Assembly (NCBI GenBank): GCA_014377525.1 | Contig: JACMPL010000010.1 | Location: 1 to 36,612 of the forward strand | From: Candidatus Saccharimonadota bacterium | Lineage (GTDB): Bacteria > Patescibacteriota > Saccharimonadia > Saccharimonadales > UBA4665 | DNA length: 36,612 nucleotides | Direction: 5' to 3' | Part shown: positions 839 to 9,883 of the stretch, in pieces | Layout of the letters: the number at the start of each line of letters is the position of its first letter | Numbering within the stretch: position 1 is the stretch's first letter | Position numbers and translations under genes: made by a program | Notes under the pieces: model-generated | Told to the model about the DNA's origin: nothing | Seen by the model: only the letters and a program-made list of their open reading frames with translations | Databases searched by the model: none

Positions 839-2398
839 TTACCGTTTTGCTGCCGGACTGATATCGGCCATATGCTTAGCAACGACGCGTAATATGTCAT
901 CACCATAACTCTCAACTTTCGCTTTGCCGAAGCCTGGCAATGAAAGCAGCTGAGAACTGGTGCTGGGCGGATTTGCCGCGATCGCCGTAAGCGCACTGTT
1001 ATGCGCGATCATAAAAGGAGCCACGGCATCAGCGGCGGCCCGGGCTAGCCGCCAAGTTTTGAGGGCATCAAATAATTCGTCATCGATATCGATAGTCGGA
1101 CTGCCCGCCGTTTTACTAGGAGCCACTACCTCATCGAGGATATCTTCGGTTTTGACAGACAAACCAGCTGAATCGATTCGAATCCGGCGATCAAATTCGT
1201 GAATTTCAGGGTGCATCGAAAACGCCGTTCGATTAACGCCTTGTAAATACAAGCCATCAAGACTTCGTACTCGTGACAGTGCCACGTACCCCATCCCCGG
1301 CGTAAAGGCTTTACTGAGGTCAATTTCGGCGGCGTCTAGGCTCATGCCTTGACTTTTGTGAATCGTAATCGCCCAAGCCAGACGCAGCGGGAGTTGGGCG
1401 ACTTCAGCTTTGACTTTACCGTCTTCACTGAAATTCCAACTATATGGCTCGACATGTATGATTCTACCCGACATTAACCGTACGACCGGTTGGTCACCAC
1501 GAAAATCAATCACCTGCCCGCGGCTGCCGTTAGCAAACCCCTCGGCAAAATTATTAGCAACGAACATTACCTCGGCGCCGACTTTAAGTTCTAGTAATTC
1601 CGGCGCCAGCACGCTTTTGACCAATGATTCAATCCGCTGCTTATTGCCCTTAAATTGCATTTGTGACGATTTAATCTTGGTGGTGAGCGCTTTGAGATGG
1701 CGCTGATTAATCGCATCGACATCAATATTATGTGCATACAGTCGGGTCACGGTGACGTCTGATGGCACGGTTTTCTGCATTCGACCACCCAGCAAGCGGC
1801 GATGTTCGTCGGTGATATCACCACTGCGCATCGCTTCTAATAATTCGAGCAGGCCATCGCTTTCGGCCTGACGATGTTGCTCGGTAATATAACAAATAGA
1901 CATATCGAGTTCTTCCCAAGCCGCCGATGTATACACGAAGTCGACCAATGAATTATCGCGGCTGATCGGCGGTAACTGGAAAAAGTCACCGACTAAAATG
2001 ACTTGCATGCCACCGTACGGCAGGTCATTCAAACGGAGTAATTTAGCGGCTTTATTGATCATATCGAGTCGAGCACCGTGCAACATCGACACTTCGTCGA
2101 TCACTAAGATATCCGTGGCATTGTAGCGCTTGGTCAATTTTTCGTTATCCGTTAGCCAGCGCTCATCGTGCGCCGTTAGCTCGTCGCGAATACCAAGCCC
2201 AGACCAGGAGTGAATCGTCGTTCCACCGATGTGCGTGGCGGCAATACCGGTACTAGCTGTCACGGCAATTCGTTTGCCTTTGGCTTTGGCACGGCGAATA
2301 AATTCATTGAGGACGTACGTCTTACCGGCACCAGGAGGTCCCGTCAAAAAAACGTTTTTGCCGCTCATCATAACGGTTAATGCTTGTTTCTGTCTCAT
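839..2398 (-). CDS. Pif1/RecD2-like superfamily 1B DNA helicase with C-terminal HRDC domain
   Basis: An ATP-dependent 5'-3' DNA helicase, probably acting on stalled forks or structured DNA. Walker A (GPPGAGKT) is at about residues 20-27 and Walker B (VIDEVSM) at about 100-105. VGDFFQLPP follows, and the late motif AWAITIHKSQGMSLD is the Pif1 signature. The last ~75 residues (DDELFDALKTWRLARAAADA to the C-terminus) form an HRDC nucleic-acid-binding domain, as in RecQ and RNase D. I chose the ATG at 2398 (519 aa) because family members begin MxQxQALxxMxxGxNVFLTG and a GGAG lies just upstream; a GTG at 2407 adds three residues. The gene follows the DUF4868 and small membrane genes on the same strand. 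Confidence 0.85.
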   Translation of the reverse strand: MRQKQALTVMMSGKNVFLTGPPGAGKTYVLNEFIRRAKAKGKRIAVTASTGIAATHIGGTTIHSWSGLGIRDELTAHDERWLTDNEKLTKRYNATDILVIDEVSMLHGARLDMINKAAKLLRLNDLPYGGMQVILVGDFFQLPPISRDNSLVDFVYTSAAWEELDMSICYITEQHRQAESDGLLELLEAMRSGDITDEHRRLLGGRMQKTVPSDVTVTRLYAHNIDVDAINQRHLKALTTKIKSSQMQFKGNKQRIESLVKSVLAPELLELKVGAEVMFVANNFAEGFANGSRGQVIDFRGDQPVVRLMSGRIIHVEPYSWNFSEDGKVKAEVAQLPLRLAWAITIHKSQGMSLDAAEIDLSKAFTPGMGYVALSRVRSLDGLYLQGVNRTAFSMHPEIHEFDRRIRIDSAGLSVKTEDILDEVVAPSKTAGSPTIDIDDELFDALKTWRLARAAADAVAPFMIAHNSALTAIAANPPSTSSQLLSLPGFGKAKVESYGDDILRVVAKHMADISPAAKR

Positions 2399-2440: not shown

Positions 2441-2641
2441 TTATTTTTTCGTAATGCTCAAAAGTCCCTGCGCTGCTCCAGACTGCAGTACATTGATGCC
2501 GGCAAGCACGTTCGTGACCGGGGCAATCACTGGTAGAACGACGCCGACGCCGAATAAGGCGATGGCTCCGACCGCATTAAAATTACGGTACAATTTGAGA
2601 CCACGTTCACCAATTCCTGATTTTTTCTGCTTCTCGGCCAT
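2441..2641 (-). CDS. Small membrane protein, function unknown
   Basis: A 66-residue protein with a basic, polar N-terminus (MAEKQKKSG) and a hydrophobic stretch over roughly residues 22-50 containing Gly, Val and a Pro. It could form one bent or two short membrane helices and ends in ITKK. No family is recognised. The ATG at 2641 sits exactly 6 nt after a TATACT hexamer (2653..2648), so it should be translated from a leaderless mRNA; a GTG one codon upstream is possible but less likely. The gene begins 32 nt after the DUF4868 gene ends and precedes the Pif1 helicase gene. Its position next to a KwaB-like protein recalls the membrane partner KwaA, but it is far smaller, so this is only a hypothesis. 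Confidence 0.6.
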   Translation of the reverse strand: MAEKQKKSGIGERGLKLYRNFNAVGAIALFGVGVVLPVIAPVTNVLAGINVLQSGAAQGLLSITKK

Positions 2642-2647
2642 CACACC

Positions 2648-2653
2648 AGTATA
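2648..2653 (-). promoter_or_regulatory. -10 element, leaderless start of the 66-aa membrane protein gene
   Basis: TATACT ends 6 nt before the ATG at 2641, placing +1 on the A of the start codon. The hexamer lies just past the stop of the DUF4868 gene. The -35 is poor (TAGTCG at 17 nt spacing). Confidence 0.5.
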
Positions 2654-2673
2654 TAACCGCCGGCGAAAAACGA

Positions 2674-3756
2674 CTACAGGACTTCTTTGAGAAGTTTGGC
2701 TTCTTCGTCCTCCTCAAGCTTCAACAACTTCTTTTTGACAATTTCGTAGCGCTGCCCCGTCATGTTCGATTCCATGTAATCATCGTTCAAAAGATTGATA
2801 AACTTCGTCATGTCTTTTTCGTCCATAATGATGATCGCTCCAGATTCGTCCTGCATCAAGTTAATTTCGAGATCGTCGGCGTGGCTCATCATTTCTTCTT
2901 GATTAACGAGACTCGGCTCAATTTTCTGAAGCTTCTTAATGAGACTTTTTTTACCTTTGACGAGCGTATTCATGTCTAAGCCCTCGTCGAAACTAAGACG
3001 GAAATTTGCTTCGATTTCGGCGACTTTTTGCTTGGCGATACTGGCTTCTTTGGCGTCATAGCCAAATAATTGTTTGAGCTTGGTCTGGTTAAACACGTAC
3101 ATGTCTTGGTCGAGCAGTAGCAACTGCGAATCGGTGGGAATCCGAACGGCTGCTTCGGCGTCAAAACCCATAAATTTTCCATTTTTGATCATCCAGCCAG
3201 TCTTGCCGCGCATAATATTCGACTGCGGTAAAACTTTGAAAATATAAAATGGTTTTTTGAGACCGTCATGTGACACGCGGGCCATAATACCCTTAATGCG
3301 TTTGAAATCATGTTCTTCCTCGACAAACATTTCCATTTCGTGCTCTTGCGTCTTGACCCAATTAATAACTTCTCTGGCTTTATCGACATTACTCAGCAGT
3401 GTTCGTTGGAGCACTTTGTCTTCGGCTTCGGCTTCCTCGAAACTCCGAACAATCATGCCATCGGCCGCGCCCTCCAAAACTTGCTCGAGCATTTCGTCAA
3501 TAAAGATCGGCTCAAGCTGCTTATCGAGCTCTTTTGCCATGTTCGTTTTGTAAACGACGTAATTCTTATTTATCAGGAATAAATCGATTTTAAGCTCATC
3601 TTTGAACTGGACGAGATTATTAGCCCAGGCAAAGACATCAGACTCGGCGTAGCTGGCCAGTGCTTCCTGCTCTGGTGCGAGAATATCGTTTGGTAGTGCG
3701 TGACTAGTCGTAGTCAAACTTGTGTCGTCGGTGATACTATCAGTGTTGCTATCCAT
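2674..3756 (-). CDS. DUF4868 / Kiwa KwaB-like protein
   Basis: A 360-residue acidic cytoplasmic protein. The central part reads as a DUF4868 domain (Pfam PF16162 from memory), the domain of KwaB in the Kiwa anti-phage system. The landmarks are IKGIMARVSHDG then KPFYIFKVLPQSNIMR, a W-containing segment GWMIKNGKFMGFD, SQLLLLDQDMYVFNQTKLKQLFGYD, and a helical region ending in EANF. The N-terminal ~170 residues and C-terminal ~90 residues are charged and helical, with no signal peptide or membrane segment. KwaB is known to act with the membrane protein KwaA; no full KwaA is seen here, only a 66-aa membrane protein 32 nt downstream. I prefer the ATG at 3756; a GTG at 3777 would add seven residues. 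The family call is from remembered sequence pattern. Confidence 0.6.
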   Translation of the reverse strand: MDSNTDSITDDTSLTTTSHALPNDILAPEQEALASYAESDVFAWANNLVQFKDELKIDLFLINKNYVVYKTNMAKELDKQLEPIFIDEMLEQVLEGAADGMIVRSFEEAEAEDKVLQRTLLSNVDKAREVINWVKTQEHEMEMFVEEEHDFKRIKGIMARVSHDGLKKPFYIFKVLPQSNIMRGKTGWMIKNGKFMGFDAEAAVRIPTDSQLLLLDQDMYVFNQTKLKQLFGYDAKEASIAKQKVAEIEANFRLSFDEGLDMNTLVKGKKSLIKKLQKIEPSLVNQEEMMSHADDLEINLMQDESGAIIIMDEKDMTKFINLLNDDYMESNMTGQRYEIVKKKLLKLEEDEEAKLLKEVL

Positions 3757-3876: not shown

Positions 3877-4659
3877 CTACTCGAAGCGTAGCGGCGTCAT
3901 AACTACTCGGCTAAACACCGGGTGAGTTTCGGTCGAGCGAGCCGGGTCATAGCTATAGCCATGAGCGCTAAATCGCATCAGTTGCTTAGGCTTTTCTACT
4001 CGATGATCGATCATCCAACGAGCCATAACGCCACGCATAATCTTGCTATAAATTGGTACCGTTCCGACAATACCGTTTGGCTTGGTATCAAGAAATACTG
4101 GCGTAATTATCGAGCACGGCAAATCCGTAATAACCGGTCGGGCGTACTCGTCGGAACTAAGGCAGCATACCCAATCGACTTGGCTGGAATCAACATAACT
4201 TGCTAGCTTACGGCCCCAAAATTCATACAGGTTTCGATGGCGGCCAAACCTGATCTTGGCACTCATTTCAAGCCGATATGGTTGGGTGCCGTCGAATGGC
4301 CGAACTAGGCCGTACAGGCCGCTAGAAATGAGTAGATGCTTGTTCGCCCAGTCGGCTTCGCTGCGATTCATCGTTGACGCCCGCAGACCTTTGTAGACAT
4401 CGCCAGTATACGTCCAAAGTGCAGCTTTACCGGTTTTATCTATATTCCAATCAGAATAATACTGAGCGACAGCTTGAGCGATCGTTGCGCTGACATGCAT
4501 TGTTTTCATAATTTTATTGTCGGTGTAGCTCGCAATCTTAGTTGCGATTACGGCGGCCTCAGGTAGGAATAGTGGTGTCTCGCCCGCAATATCAAATGGC
4601 GTGACTGCCATAAAATTCATAGTTTTTGACGGAGCCAGGAGTATCAGACAGCCAGGCAT
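3877..4659 (-). CDS. yaaA: YaaA family peroxide-stress / DNA-binding protein (DUF328)
   Basis: 260 aa, the normal length for the YaaA/DUF328 family. Motifs visible in order are LILLAPSKTMNF at the N-terminus, ALWTYTGDVYKGL, HLLISSGLYGLVRPFD and YRLEM, all hallmarks of the family. In E. coli, YaaA lowers intracellular iron and limits oxidative DNA damage under peroxide stress; related folds bind DNA. The start is the ATG 2 nt after the rnhA stop, so the two genes should be read from the rnhA promoter. The linkage to RNase HI suggests a shared nucleic-acid maintenance role, but that is inference. No clear terminator is seen in the 100 bp before the next gene. Confidence 0.9.
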   Translation of the reverse strand: MPGCLILLAPSKTMNFMAVTPFDIAGETPLFLPEAAVIATKIASYTDNKIMKTMHVSATIAQAVAQYYSDWNIDKTGKAALWTYTGDVYKGLRASTMNRSEADWANKHLLISSGLYGLVRPFDGTQPYRLEMSAKIRFGRHRNLYEFWGRKLASYVDSSQVDWVCCLSSDEYARPVITDLPCSIITPVFLDTKPNGIVGTVPIYSKIMRGVMARWMIDHRVEKPKQLMRFSAHGYSYDPARSTETHPVFSRVVMTPLRFE

Positions 4660-4661
4660 TG

Positions 4662-5093
4662 TTAGCGATTTGGTAGATATTTAAGTCGAGCTTCATTGGC
4701 CCAATGATCGGCCATTTCGTTGCCCGGATCATTGTTGTGGCCCCGCACCCAGGTCAGTTTTGCCTGGCTAGCTTTATACAGCGGACAAACTTCTTGGACA
4801 ATATCAAGATTTTTAATTTCACCACCTTTTTTCTTCCAGCCGTTCTTTTCCCATGGCAATGACCATATAGTAATCACCTTAATCCAAAATTCGCTGTCGC
4901 TGAATATTTCACAGGGTTCGCCGTTGGCATCTTTGAGCGCCGCTATGATCGCAAAGCCTTCCATTCGGATATTCGTCGTTTTGCGGCCGCTTGACTCGCC
5001 ACCAAGTACACAAACCTCGTTATTTTTAATGACTGAATAGCCGCCATTTCCGGGGTTGGGGTCACAGCTTCCATCGGTATAATAAATTATCAT
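4662..5093 (-). CDS. rnhA: Ribonuclease HI
   Basis: 143 aa. Cuts the RNA strand of RNA-DNA hybrids (R-loops, primers). All four catalytic acids are in place: Asp7 in YTDGSCDPNPG, Glu45 in RMEGFA, Asp66 in FSDSE, and Asp129 in GNEMAD, with the supporting His119 in RGHNN. A basic, Trp-rich handle region (residues ~77-95, WEKNGWKKKGG) corresponds to the substrate-binding protrusion. The ATG at 5093 lies 7 nt behind a TATACT hexamer, so the mRNA is probably leaderless. First gene of a two-gene unit with yaaA. Confidence 0.95.
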   Translation of the reverse strand: MIIYYTDGSCDPNPGNGGYSVIKNNEVCVLGGESSGRKTTNIRMEGFAIIAALKDANGEPCEIFSDSEFWIKVITIWSLPWEKNGWKKKGGEIKNLDIVQEVCPLYKASQAKLTWVRGHNNDPGNEMADHWANEARLKYLPNR

Positions 5094-6940: not shown

Positions 6941-7735
6941 TTACTTTGTTAAGCAATGTCTGCAAGTGTTCTCTATGAACCCAACCTTACTATGAAGAGC
7001 GTGCCTTGTTGCTCGAAGTACTGAAAGCCCAAGTAATGCTCGCTCATCCTCAGATGCAGCGCGCTCATACGGATTCTTTTGCAATAGACTAGCCGCCACG
7101 GTCTGCGTTCGCCAGTAGTCAACAGCACTTTCAATATCGTCATATTCAACTTTTTCATGCTGCGTTCGTACATTTTCCTTTAGAACATCAAGAACTTCTG
7201 ATGAATCAGAATCATAATCGACTACCTCGCCTTCCTCATCGTGTAGACTGTCATCTTCGCAGGCACAGCACGTCACAATTGGCTCATCATCTTCGTCTTT
7301 GTACTGATACATTTCGCACAAAAACAGAATTTTATCATCAGTCCAATATGTGAAGTTTAGTGACTTTTCGAAGGTGACTAATCCGACCTGCTCTTGCGCA
7401 GTTGCCGGATCAACAGTTTCATCGGAACTATCTTCAAGAAATTTCACTGCTACCGGCAGTGGTGGTTCACTATTTTCACTCGTTAAAGAAACTCCAAAAT
7501 TATAGCGAACTATCGCTTTTGTATTGTTAGACCTGAAACGAACAGCACTGAATTTATAATCTACTTCGAGCCGATCGAACGGTTCATTTTGGTCAGCCAC
7601 CACATCGCCGAAACCGACACTGAAATACGTTCTATCAGCTTCACCTCTTCTAAACTGGTAATCCATGGCTGCAAGATTACGCATCTCTACTTCTAGTTTA
7701 CGCACTGGCGACTGCTGATTAGGATTTGAGGTCAT
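6941..7735 (-). CDS. Acidic hypothetical protein overlapping glyQS
   Basis: 264 aa, no family recognised. Soluble, with a strongly acidic middle (residues ~140-185, rich in Asp and Glu) between an N-terminal beta-rich part (residues ~25-90) and a helical C-terminus. Cys pairs occur at VTCCACED and at the very end (CRHC), so a metal site is possible but unproven. The first 17 nt overlap the end of the glyQS gene in another frame, suggesting translational coupling; no Shine-Dalgarno or -10 hexamer is seen before this ATG. I cannot say whether it is linked in function to glycyl-tRNA synthesis. Confidence 0.65.
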   Translation of the reverse strand: MTSNPNQQSPVRKLEVEMRNLAAMDYQFRRGEADRTYFSVGFGDVVADQNEPFDRLEVDYKFSAVRFRSNNTKAIVRYNFGVSLTSENSEPPLPVAVKFLEDSSDETVDPATAQEQVGLVTFEKSLNFTYWTDDKILFLCEMYQYKDEDDEPIVTCCACEDDSLHDEEGEVVDYDSDSSEVLDVLKENVRTQHEKVEYDDIESAVDYWRTQTVAASLLQKNPYERAASEDERALLGLSVLRATRHALHSKVGFIENTCRHCLTK

Positions 7736-9143
7736 TTTGGGAATTATTCAAAAATTTACTCAAATCAGCAACGCCCACTCGTTGCTGTTTGGTTGTGTCA
7801 CGGTCGCGCACCGTTACAGTGTCGTCCTCGAGCGTATCAAAGTCGATAGTGACGCAGTAGGGCGTGCCGATTTCGTCTTGGCGACGGTAACGTTTACCGA
7901 TATTACCGTTGTCATCCCACATGACAGCGCCGAATTCTTTTTTGAGCACAGCGAACACTTCGCGGGCCTTGGCAACGAGTTCTGGCTTGTTCTTGAGCAG
8001 CGGACTGACGGCGACTTTAACGGGCGCCAAATGCGCTGGAAGCTTGAGGTAGCTGCGCTCTTCACCATTGACTTCATCGGTTGTGTAAGCGGCGCAGAGC
8101 ACTGCCATAATGGCCCGCTCCAAGCCAAAAGTTGGTTCAATAACATGCGGCGTAAAGGCCGGACTGCCATCTTTGGGGCGATAATCCATACTTTTCTTGC
8201 TGACACGTTCGATATTCTTAAGGTCAAAGTCGGTACGATAAGCCAATCCTAATAATTCTTCGCGGCCGATTGGAAAATCAAATTCAAAGTCGATAGTTCG
8301 TTTACTGTAATGCGCCAGGTCGTCACTGTCGACTTCTAATTCGTGTACGCTAGCGTCCGGTAGGCCGAGAGCCCGGCACCAACCATGGATTAGTCCGACC
8401 CATTTTTCAAACTCGGCTTCCCAGTTTTTAGGATCAACGAAATACTCGATTTCCATTTGTTCGAATTCGCGGGAACGGAAAATAAAATCTCGCGGACTAA
8501 TTTCATTCCGGAAAGCTTTGCCCTGCTGGCCAATTCCAAACGGTAAGTCTGGGTAAAAACTATCGACGACGTTTTTGAAGTTCGTAAAAATACCCTGGGC
8601 AGTTTCCGGGCGGAGGTATGACACACTACTTGGGTCAAACGACATAAGCTCGTACTTATCGGCGTCGCTGTCTTCTACTTCGTTGCCCATACTATCGACC
8701 GGTAGGCCAACTTTGCTAACCTCACCGCCCTGGTTTGGGCCGACGAAAGTCCGGAACATCATATTGAACTGGCGAGCCTCACCGAAGGTATCTTTTTGGC
8801 CACAATTCGGGCAGCGCGACAGGTCAATTTTATCGGCTCGGAACCGGCCCTTACAGTTTGAACACTCGACTAGTGGATCGGTAAAAGTATCAACGTGACC
8901 ACTTGCCTGCCAGACTTTTTGGTTCATCAGAATTGCGGCGTCGACGCCGTACATGTCTTCGCGGTCGTCAACGAACATTTTCCACCACAACTGCATAATG
9001 TTGCGCTTGAGAGCGACACCCAACGGGCCGTAATCCCATGTACCGCTTAGTCCACCGTAGACATCGCTGCCTGGATAAATAAAGCCCCGGCGCTTACATA
9101 AGCTGACAATATCTTCTAATTTTACCGGTTTTTGGTCACTCAT
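7719..9143 (-). CDS. glyQS: Glycyl-tRNA synthetase, dimeric class II type
   Basis: 474 aa. Joins glycine to tRNA-Gly. This is the single-chain alpha2 enzyme (as in Thermus, Mycoplasma and eukaryotes), not the alpha2beta2 glyQ/glyS form. Seen are DIVSLCKRRGFIYPGSDVYG at the N-terminus, a zinc knuckle (Cys94, Cys97, Cys111, Cys114), YLRPETAQGIFTNFKNV, class II motif 2 FRNEISPRDFIFRSREFEQME, motif 3 around TFGLERAIMAVL, and the anticodon-binding domain (LAPVKVAVSPLL onward). I start at MSDQ (9143) because the upstream in-frame ATG at 9161 lies ahead of the TATAAT hexamer at 9158..9153. Immediately downstream of recO. Confidence 0.95.
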   Translation of the reverse strand: MSDQKPVKLEDIVSLCKRRGFIYPGSDVYGGLSGTWDYGPLGVALKRNIMQLWWKMFVDDREDMYGVDAAILMNQKVWQASGHVDTFTDPLVECSNCKGRFRADKIDLSRCPNCGQKDTFGEARQFNMMFRTFVGPNQGGEVSKVGLPVDSMGNEVEDSDADKYELMSFDPSSVSYLRPETAQGIFTNFKNVVDSFYPDLPFGIGQQGKAFRNEISPRDFIFRSREFEQMEIEYFVDPKNWEAEFEKWVGLIHGWCRALGLPDASVHELEVDSDDLAHYSKRTIDFEFDFPIGREELLGLAYRTDFDLKNIERVSKKSMDYRPKDGSPAFTPHVIEPTFGLERAIMAVLCAAYTTDEVNGEERSYLKLPAHLAPVKVAVSPLLKNKPELVAKAREVFAVLKKEFGAVMWDDNGNIGKRYRRQDEIGTPYCVTIDFDTLEDDTVTVRDRDTTKQQRVGVADLSKFLNNSQNDLKS

Positions 9144-9152
9144 AATGGTTCG

Positions 9153-9158
9153 ATTATA
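9153..9158 (-). promoter_or_regulatory. -10 element, near-leaderless promoter of glyQS
   Basis: TATAAT at 9158..9153, 9 nt before the ATG at 9143, predicting a leader of about 3 nt. It lies 20 bp past the recO stop, and the -35 position (TAGGTT) overlaps the recO stop codon. Confidence 0.5.
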
Positions 9159-9178
9159 CATGACCGACCGCTACCAAC

Positions 9179-9883
9179 CTATTGATAGCCTTCCATCATA
9201 ATGACTGGCTGAAACAAGTTTTGGATGATCGGCGCGACGGTTGGCAGAAAATCTATAACTCCCTTTACTTGCTGTAATACCACTGGCGAATTATCGCTGA
9301 ATAGTAACCGCAGCACTTTGATGTGATCTGCTTCCAGGCGACCACGCTCATGAACCATGCAGGCCATCGTGTCAAAATCAAAATTATAGGTCGTATCAGC
9401 GTCGAGCGAATCACCGCCGGTATCTGTTATGAGGTTTGGCATGTGGCCGGCAAAGCGCACCAAATGGGCCTGAAACCAGACGCGAATCAACCCGATATCG
9501 ATGGCCGGATTGTTTAATGCCGCGAACGACGTTTCAAGCAGCTCATAATACTGCGGCTCGGGGGCGTCTTCAGTAGCCTTATGCATCAGCTTGATCAGAT
9601 CATAGCCAAGCATCGTACGCTCAATATTTTCGACGATACGTCCATAGTGGGTTTCTAGTCGACTTGATATCAACGTACCGATTTCGCCTCTGCCCTTCAA
9701 ATATGTGATTTGGCTGGTACTGAATAACTCGATACCGCCGGCGTTTTTGCTCTTAGCTTTGCGTACTCCGCGGGCCATCAGCCGGAGCTTGCCCTGGTCG
9801 GGCGTCAGCAGTGTGATAATTCGGTCGGCTTCGCCGTAGTCTGTTCGGGCTAAGACGATTACCGAAGCTTGTAGCTGGTTCAT
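9179..9883 (-). CDS. recO: DNA repair protein RecO
   Basis: 234 aa. Recombination mediator that loads RecA onto SSB-coated gaps together with RecR. The N-terminal OB fold is clear (SVIVLARTDYGEADRIITLLTPDQGKLRLMARGVRKAKSK split by the usual turns), followed by the helical domain. The canonical Cys4 zinc site of many RecO proteins is not evident: only one Cys remains, in the FDTMACMVHE region. The ATG overlaps the TGA of the receiver-like gene by 4 nt (ATGA), so translation is coupled to the degenerate two-component-like pair upstream. Confidence 0.85.
   Translation of the reverse strand: MNQLQASVIVLARTDYGEADRIITLLTPDQGKLRLMARGVRKAKSKNAGGIELFSTSQITYLKGRGEIGTLISSRLETHYGRIVENIERTMLGYDLIKLMHKATEDAPEPQYYELLETSFAALNNPAIDIGLIRVWFQAHLVRFAGHMPNLITDTGGDSLDADTTYNFDFDTMACMVHERGRLEADHIKVLRLLFSDNSPVVLQQVKGVIDFLPTVAPIIQNLFQPVIMMEGYQ

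What the first reader, a model, noticed from the sequence alone, without database searches (positions are those of the whole stretch)
2441..3756. Candidate minimal Kiwa-like pair: DUF4868 (KwaB-like) protein plus a 66-aa membrane protein
The 360-aa protein shows a DUF4868/KwaB-type pattern, and 32 nt downstream lies a small membrane protein. In Kiwa, the membrane protein KwaA senses infection and KwaB (DUF4868) is the effector partner. Here the membrane partner would be about a third of the KwaA size and no KwaA is present, so this could be a reduced, undescribed form of the system in a small-genome host, or a housekeeping use of DUF4868. The membrane gene has its own leaderless -10, so the two may be separately controlled.
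Basis: partly seen in the sequence, partly recalled or inferred. Interest (0 to 1): 0.65.

Follow-up and report, generated by a model that had tools for sequence, protein, structure and literature searches.

The report
KwaA-free core KwaB gene of Saccharibacteria
A protein from the family of the Kiwa antiviral effector KwaB is here not part of a small defence pair: it is a single-copy chromosomal gene found in about two thirds of sampled Saccharibacteria, without the membrane sensor KwaA, and the small membrane gene beside it is an occasional extra.

Summary
The genes are real. The 360-aa protein (2674-3756, minus) is a genuine full-length KwaB/DUF4868 homologue by HMMs, by fold and by alignment. 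The 66-aa gene (2441-2641, minus) is a real small membrane-protein gene. The 'minimal Kiwa pair' reading is not supported. KwaB has an orthologue in 192 of 295 genomes of the class, one copy each. It was not found outside the class, and a KwaA model hits 1 of 295. That exception, G104, carries a true kwaA-kwaB operon beside restriction genes as well as the core copy. The core copy lies in a conserved housekeeping block (recO-glyS-rnhA-kwaB-pif1-bglB/yvcK-mraZ-mraW), and some relatives keep the block without kwaB. It diverges about as fast as its neighbours. The small gene recurs directly after kwaB in two further loci, but four same-genus genomes and most others lack it, and homologues occur far from kwaB. 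Four phage contigs carry core-type KwaB without KwaA. Best reading: a KwaB-family DNA-binding protein fixed in the core genome, working without KwaA, probably in genome maintenance; standing KwaA-free immunity is the main rival. Function is inferred and untested.

The parts
2674..3756 (-). core KwaB-like gene (360 aa, ATG start; a GTG 21 nt upstream is possible)
   Evidence: PF16162 46.5 bits, PDLC00233 5e-14, AlphaFold2 model pLDDT 86 whose only significant PDB matches are KwaB chains, E down to 8.9e-14; single-copy orthologues in 192/295 class genomes
2441..2641 (-). small membrane protein gene (66 aa), optional neighbour of kwaB, no known family
   Evidence: homologues directly after kwaB in L146 and L155/G172; no Pfam, PADLOC or NCBIfam match; hydrophobicity
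839..2398 (-). Pif1-family helicase with C-terminal HRDC domain, the commonest close neighbour of kwaB
   Evidence: PF05970 PIF1 4.5e-33, HRDC 2e-18; family profile matches solved PIF1 structures at 2e-101; within 5 kb and same strand in 60 of 81 non-redundant KwaB loci
4662..5093 (-). RNase HI-type gene, second commonest neighbour of kwaB
   Evidence: PF00075 1.1e-30; within 5 kb of kwaB in 57 of 81 loci, 55 on the same strand
3877..4659 (-). yaaA-like peroxide stress protein gene between rnhA and kwaB in this genome
   Evidence: PF03883 1.8e-62; found near kwaB in only 5 of 81 loci
7719..9883 (-). glyS (480 aa) and recO-like gene, part of the conserved block around kwaB
   Evidence: ORFs, named here from sequence resemblance; GlyS in 31 and RecO in 22 of 81 loci

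Best explanation
A KwaB-family protein that is a vertically inherited core gene of much of the Saccharibacteria and works without KwaA. Shown: family membership and fold, single copy, wide presence within the class, absence of KwaA, position in a housekeeping gene block, divergence like its neighbours. Inferred: by analogy with Kiwa KwaB (DNA-binding, not a nuclease, forms homodimers; PMC12904381) it is a cytoplasmic DNA- or RNA:DNA-binding protein used in chromosome replication or maintenance in the same functional neighbourhood as Pif1 helicase and RNase HI, though not strictly dependent on Pif1. The 66-aa membrane protein is an optional accessory, perhaps tethering it to the membrane in a few lineages. 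The first part is about 90% likely, the specific maintenance role about 45%.
For: KwaB profile and fold. 192/295 class genomes, one copy each except one genome with two; none in sampled Patescibacteria outside the class; 370 relatives in GTDB species genomes, the 80 kept carrying Saccharibacteria or unspecific names. KwaA in only 1 of 295 genomes; no KwaA-like 4-TM gene beside any of 109 core loci, while the scan recovers the true Kiwa control (two other hits look like a different membrane family). Conserved block, and clean absence of kwaB from the same block in L213-L219. Divergence comparable to Pif1, YvcK and BglB on the same genome pairs, and correlated with Pif1 (r=0.60, permutation maximum 0.12). 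Two genera without a close Pif1 keep kwaB at unchanged relative rate. G104 carries a KwaA-KwaB Kiwa operon next to restriction-modification genes in addition to its core copy.
Against: No function was measured. The gene is absent from many families of the class and from several genomes whose relatives have it, so it is not universally needed. The Pif1/RNase HI linkage is part of a block that also exists without kwaB (L213-L219, L225-L227), so it may be plain synteny. KwaB alone is reported to have antiphage effect independent of KwaA (PMC11514479, citing a preprint), which fits the immunity rival. Correlation with GlyS divergence is weak (r=0.16).
Confidence: 0.45

Rival explanations
1. KwaA-free standing immunity: the protein binds incoming phage DNA and blocks its replication or late transcription as Kiwa KwaB does, but is made constitutively and fixed in the chromosome; phage-borne copies would be decoys or superinfection blockers.
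For: KwaB family and fold; report that KwaB acts against phage independently of KwaA (PMC11514479); core-type KwaB on four phage contigs.
Against: Near-constant single copy, housekeeping neighbourhood and housekeeping-like divergence are unlike patchy defence genes; Kiwa is reported in about 1.8% of genomes (PMC11514479).
Confidence: 0.27
2. Minimal Kiwa pair: the 66-aa membrane protein replaces KwaA as sensor and recruits KwaB to the membrane.
For: Same order kwaB - small gene - pif1 in the window and in L155/G172, and kwaB - small gene in L146, with gaps of 32, 7 and 12 nt.
Against: Absent from four same-genus genomes and nearly all others; clear homologues far from kwaB or in genomes without it (G109, G140, G075, G078); no similarity to KwaA models; one hydrophobic stretch rather than KwaA's four.
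Confidence: 0.06
3. Functional module with Pif1 helicase and RNase HI: KwaB is a dedicated partner of Pif1 in R-loop or fork processing.
For: Pif1 within 5 kb and always same strand in 60/81 loci, downstream in 49 and upstream in 11; RNase HI in 57/81.
Against: Pif1 is present without KwaB in many genera and KwaB without Pif1 in others; no change of KwaB rate where Pif1 is missing (ratio to RNase HI 1.54 against 1.52); the block exists without kwaB.
Confidence: 0.15

Closest known systems
Kiwa KwaB (PDB 9mrx, 9mtn, 9nyu, 9o0i; PF16162, PDLC00222-00237)
   Same: Full-length profile match and two-domain fold: Foldseek E 8.9e-14 over 329 columns; shared C-terminal LLNDDYxxSxxTxxxY motif.
   Different: No kwaA, no defence island, single-copy core gene; 13-16% identity to solved KwaB; TM-score only 0.40-0.49, which may reflect domain orientation; below the NCBIfam equivalog cut-off.
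Kiwa operon of a Saccharibacteria genome (G104; L050:4983-6483)
   Same: Contains a KwaB homologue (PDLC00233 2.9e-18) in the same class of bacteria.
   Different: Has an overlapping kwaA (PDLC00213 3.5e-25) beside a cytosine methylase, restriction enzyme, helicase and Vsr; about 20% identical to the core copies and on a very long branch.
KwaB-like genes on IMG/VR phage contigs (L233-L236)
   Same: Core-type sequence with DVFQWAN motif, 32-39% identical to bacterial core copies, no KwaA beside them.
   Different: In co-directional phage gene blocks with terminase, lysin and VRR-NUC/Holliday-resolvase-like genes; extra conserved N-terminal segment; long branches.

Membership tests
KwaB/DUF4868 protein family (PF16162) | profile score over the curated cut-off | tested here: met
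   46.5 bits against 26.3
KwaB/DUF4868 protein family (PF16162) | KwaB fold over the whole length | tested here: met
   only the six KwaB chains match significantly, E 8.9e-14 to 3e-12, 319-335 columns, TM 0.40-0.49
Kiwa system | KwaA membrane protein encoded beside KwaB | tested here: not met
   no KwaA in own genome or beside any core copy; G104's second copy is the positive control
Kiwa system | NCBIfam KwaB equivalog NF041623 | tested here: not met
   56.3 bits against cut-off 200
Kiwa system | patchy distribution and defence-island context | tested here: not met
   192/295 genomes, one copy each, housekeeping block
Kiwa system | protection against phage | not testable with these tools
   needs an experiment
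Kiwa system | DNA binding by KwaB | not testable with these tools
   reported for Kiwa KwaB (PMC12904381); core copies have pI about 4.8, like the Kiwa copy in G104 at 4.9, which decides nothing
Pif1 helicase family (window 839-2398) | PIF1 profile match | tested here: met
   PF05970 4.5e-33, solved PIF1 structures 2e-101 with the family profile

The most novel reading that the evidence does not exclude
An antiviral effector family, KwaB, has a KwaA-independent core-genome form in Saccharibacteria that serves chromosome biology, and phages carry their own copies of this form. Kiwa would then be only one use of a wider DNA-binding family.
Probability: 0.45. Interest if true: 0.65.

Novelty: new variant of a known kind. 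Interest (0 to 1): 0.5.

Why it matters
Annotation tools would flag this gene as a Kiwa defence component in most Saccharibacteria, which is probably misleading. If the core form is a genome-maintenance protein, it offers a view of what KwaB did outside defence, in bacteria with very small genomes where each retained gene is informative. If instead it is standing immunity, it would be a rare antiviral protein fixed as a core gene. G104, with both forms in one genome, and phages with their own copies make the question testable. I found no paper in the held library that describes this.

Tried and rejected
Sequence search of the protein alone against PDB found nothing; the profile reached KwaB only at E 0.18-0.94, so the fold search was needed. 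P0001 against INPHARED phages and the G104 Kiwa KwaB against plasmids and IMG/VR gave no match. I first thought the small gene unique to this genome (greedy ORF picking); a direct tblastn and profile search corrected that. I considered Pif1 as an obligate partner and rejected it on distribution and rate. Other hydrophobic small ORFs after kwaB (12 of 107 loci) are mostly unrelated sequences, so no general analogue of the small gene. A host for the phage contigs could not be fixed: their terminase is only 26-39% identical to those in Saccharibacteria genomes. The 2025 Cell paper on Kiwa is not held; its content is taken from reviews.

Full report
What is there. The minus strand holds, in order of transcription, rnhA (4662-5093), a yaaA-like gene (3877-4659), a 360-aa ORF (2674-3756), a 66-aa ORF (2441-2641) and a Pif1-HRDC helicase (839-2398). 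The contig otherwise looks like ordinary chromosome (ORFs resembling secA, pyrG, serS, prfB, ftsX, xseA, named from sequence resemblance only).

Family. The 360-aa protein matches PF16162 above its cut-off and PADLOC KwaB models nearly end to end, but reaches only 56 of 200 bits for the NCBIfam KwaB equivalog. An AlphaFold2 model from 60 orthologues (pLDDT 86, pTM 0.78) has as its only significant PDB matches six chains from three KwaB entries (E 8.9e-14 to 3e-12). TM-scores are 0.40-0.49, so the match covers the whole length but the two domains are probably oriented differently.

Distribution. With a profile of 60 orthologues, 192 of 295 sampled genomes of the class have it, always one copy except G104 (one search gives the same picture with PF16162). 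In 380 genomes drawn from the phylum, all 24 hits shown are in the window's own order. A GTDB scan found 370 relatives; the 80 best are all labelled Saccharibacteria/Saccharimonadia, Patescibacteria or just 'bacterium'. A KwaA model credibly hits only G104 (1.6e-24; the next hit is 2.9e-4). In G104 the second KwaB is preceded by an overlapping kwaA and by cytosine methylase, restriction enzyme, helicase and Vsr genes: a true Kiwa next to restriction genes, beside an ordinary core copy elsewhere in the same genome (L051). A scan for 4-TM neighbours recovers that KwaA; its only two other hits (L160, L165) look like another membrane family.

Neighbourhood. In 81 non-redundant loci with flanks, Pif1 lies within 5 kb in 60 (59 within 2.5 kb, all same strand, 49 downstream and 11 upstream) and RNase HI in 57; BglB, GlyS, YvcK, MraZ, MraW and RecO recur. 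Seven KwaB-negative relatives of family f2 keep much of this block without kwaB (L213-L219), and three genomes of other families keep parts of it (L225-L227). So kwaB sits in an old housekeeping region and was cleanly lost, or never entered, in some lineages. This supports vertical inheritance, but it also means linkage to Pif1 is weak evidence of partnership. Two genera largely lack a close Pif1 and keep kwaB, at an unchanged rate relative to RNase HI (1.54 against 1.52) and MraW (1.32 against 1.25). Divergence of KwaB correlates with Pif1 (r=0.60), BglB (0.71), YvcK (0.52) and RNase HI (0.46), but poorly with GlyS (0.16).

The small membrane gene. It is a real gene: homologues 30-33% identical lie 12 nt and 7 nt after kwaB in L146 and L155, and in L155 pif1 follows, exactly as in the window. 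G172 has the same arrangement and appears to be the same genome or a near-identical one. All KwaB copies with it lie in the clade of the window's family, in two places, with relatives in between that lack it. But it is absent from the other four genomes of the genus, and confident homologues in G109, G140, G075 and G078 are away from kwaB or in genomes without it. It is therefore an optional accessory, and the evidence does not make it a reduced KwaA. The claimed -10 is present by eye (TATACT, 6 nt before the ATG) but not supported by the promoter scan.

Phage copies. Four IMG/VR contigs of 16-33 kb carry core-type KwaB, 32-37% identical to the window's, inside phage gene blocks; terminase genes are recognisable in L233 and an endolysin in L236. 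In a quick tree they are long branches placed among or beside family f2 copies with modest support, so the direction of transfer is open. The host is unproven.

Mechanism. From reviews: Kiwa KwaB forms homodimers bound to KwaA tetramers, binds DNA, does not cut it, and blocks replication and late transcription (PMC12904381); KwaB is said to act against phage without KwaA (PMC11514479, citing a preprint). For the core form, DNA binding is an inference from family membership. I think a chromosome-maintenance role is the most likely (0.45), standing immunity second (0.27), a dedicated Pif1 partnership 0.15, a minimal Kiwa pair 0.06. The claim that it is a KwaA-free core gene of this lineage, not a Kiwa system, I hold at about 0.9.

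Limits. Gene calling in neighbours was by simple ORF picking. Sampling was 295 of the class. KwaA was sought genome-wide with one of about fifteen models, plus a scan of neighbours. Many genomes are MAGs, so single absences can be gaps. No function was measured.

Noticed in passing
L050:84-6483 (genome G104): Probable complete Kiwa operon (kwaA-kwaB, overlapping) beside a cytosine methylase, type II restriction enzyme, helicase and Vsr gene in a Saccharibacteria genome, in addition to its core KwaB copy.
   Followed up: partly
L233:4920-6056, L234:4857-5954, L235, L236:4926-6023 (IMG/VR contigs): Phage contigs encode full-length core-type KwaB with a conserved N-terminal extension and no KwaA; host not identified.
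   Followed up: partly
L193-L196, L198 (G109, G140, G075, G078, G124): Family of about 65-aa basic membrane proteins with a C-terminal N-x-AQAGGFE-type motif, scattered in Saccharibacteria in unrelated contexts, no Pfam match for the window's member.
   Followed up: partly
upstream of pif1 in L112, L114, L115, L133, L177, L179 and others: TATAAT-like boxes sit about 8-15 nt before the pif1 ATG (56 of 68 starts have one within 30 nt), suggesting very short or leaderless transcripts in this lineage.
   Followed up: no
P0001 residues 63-335: Weak match to phage family phrog_11123 of unknown function (E 1.6e-6), which may be a KwaB-like family of known phages.
   Followed up: no
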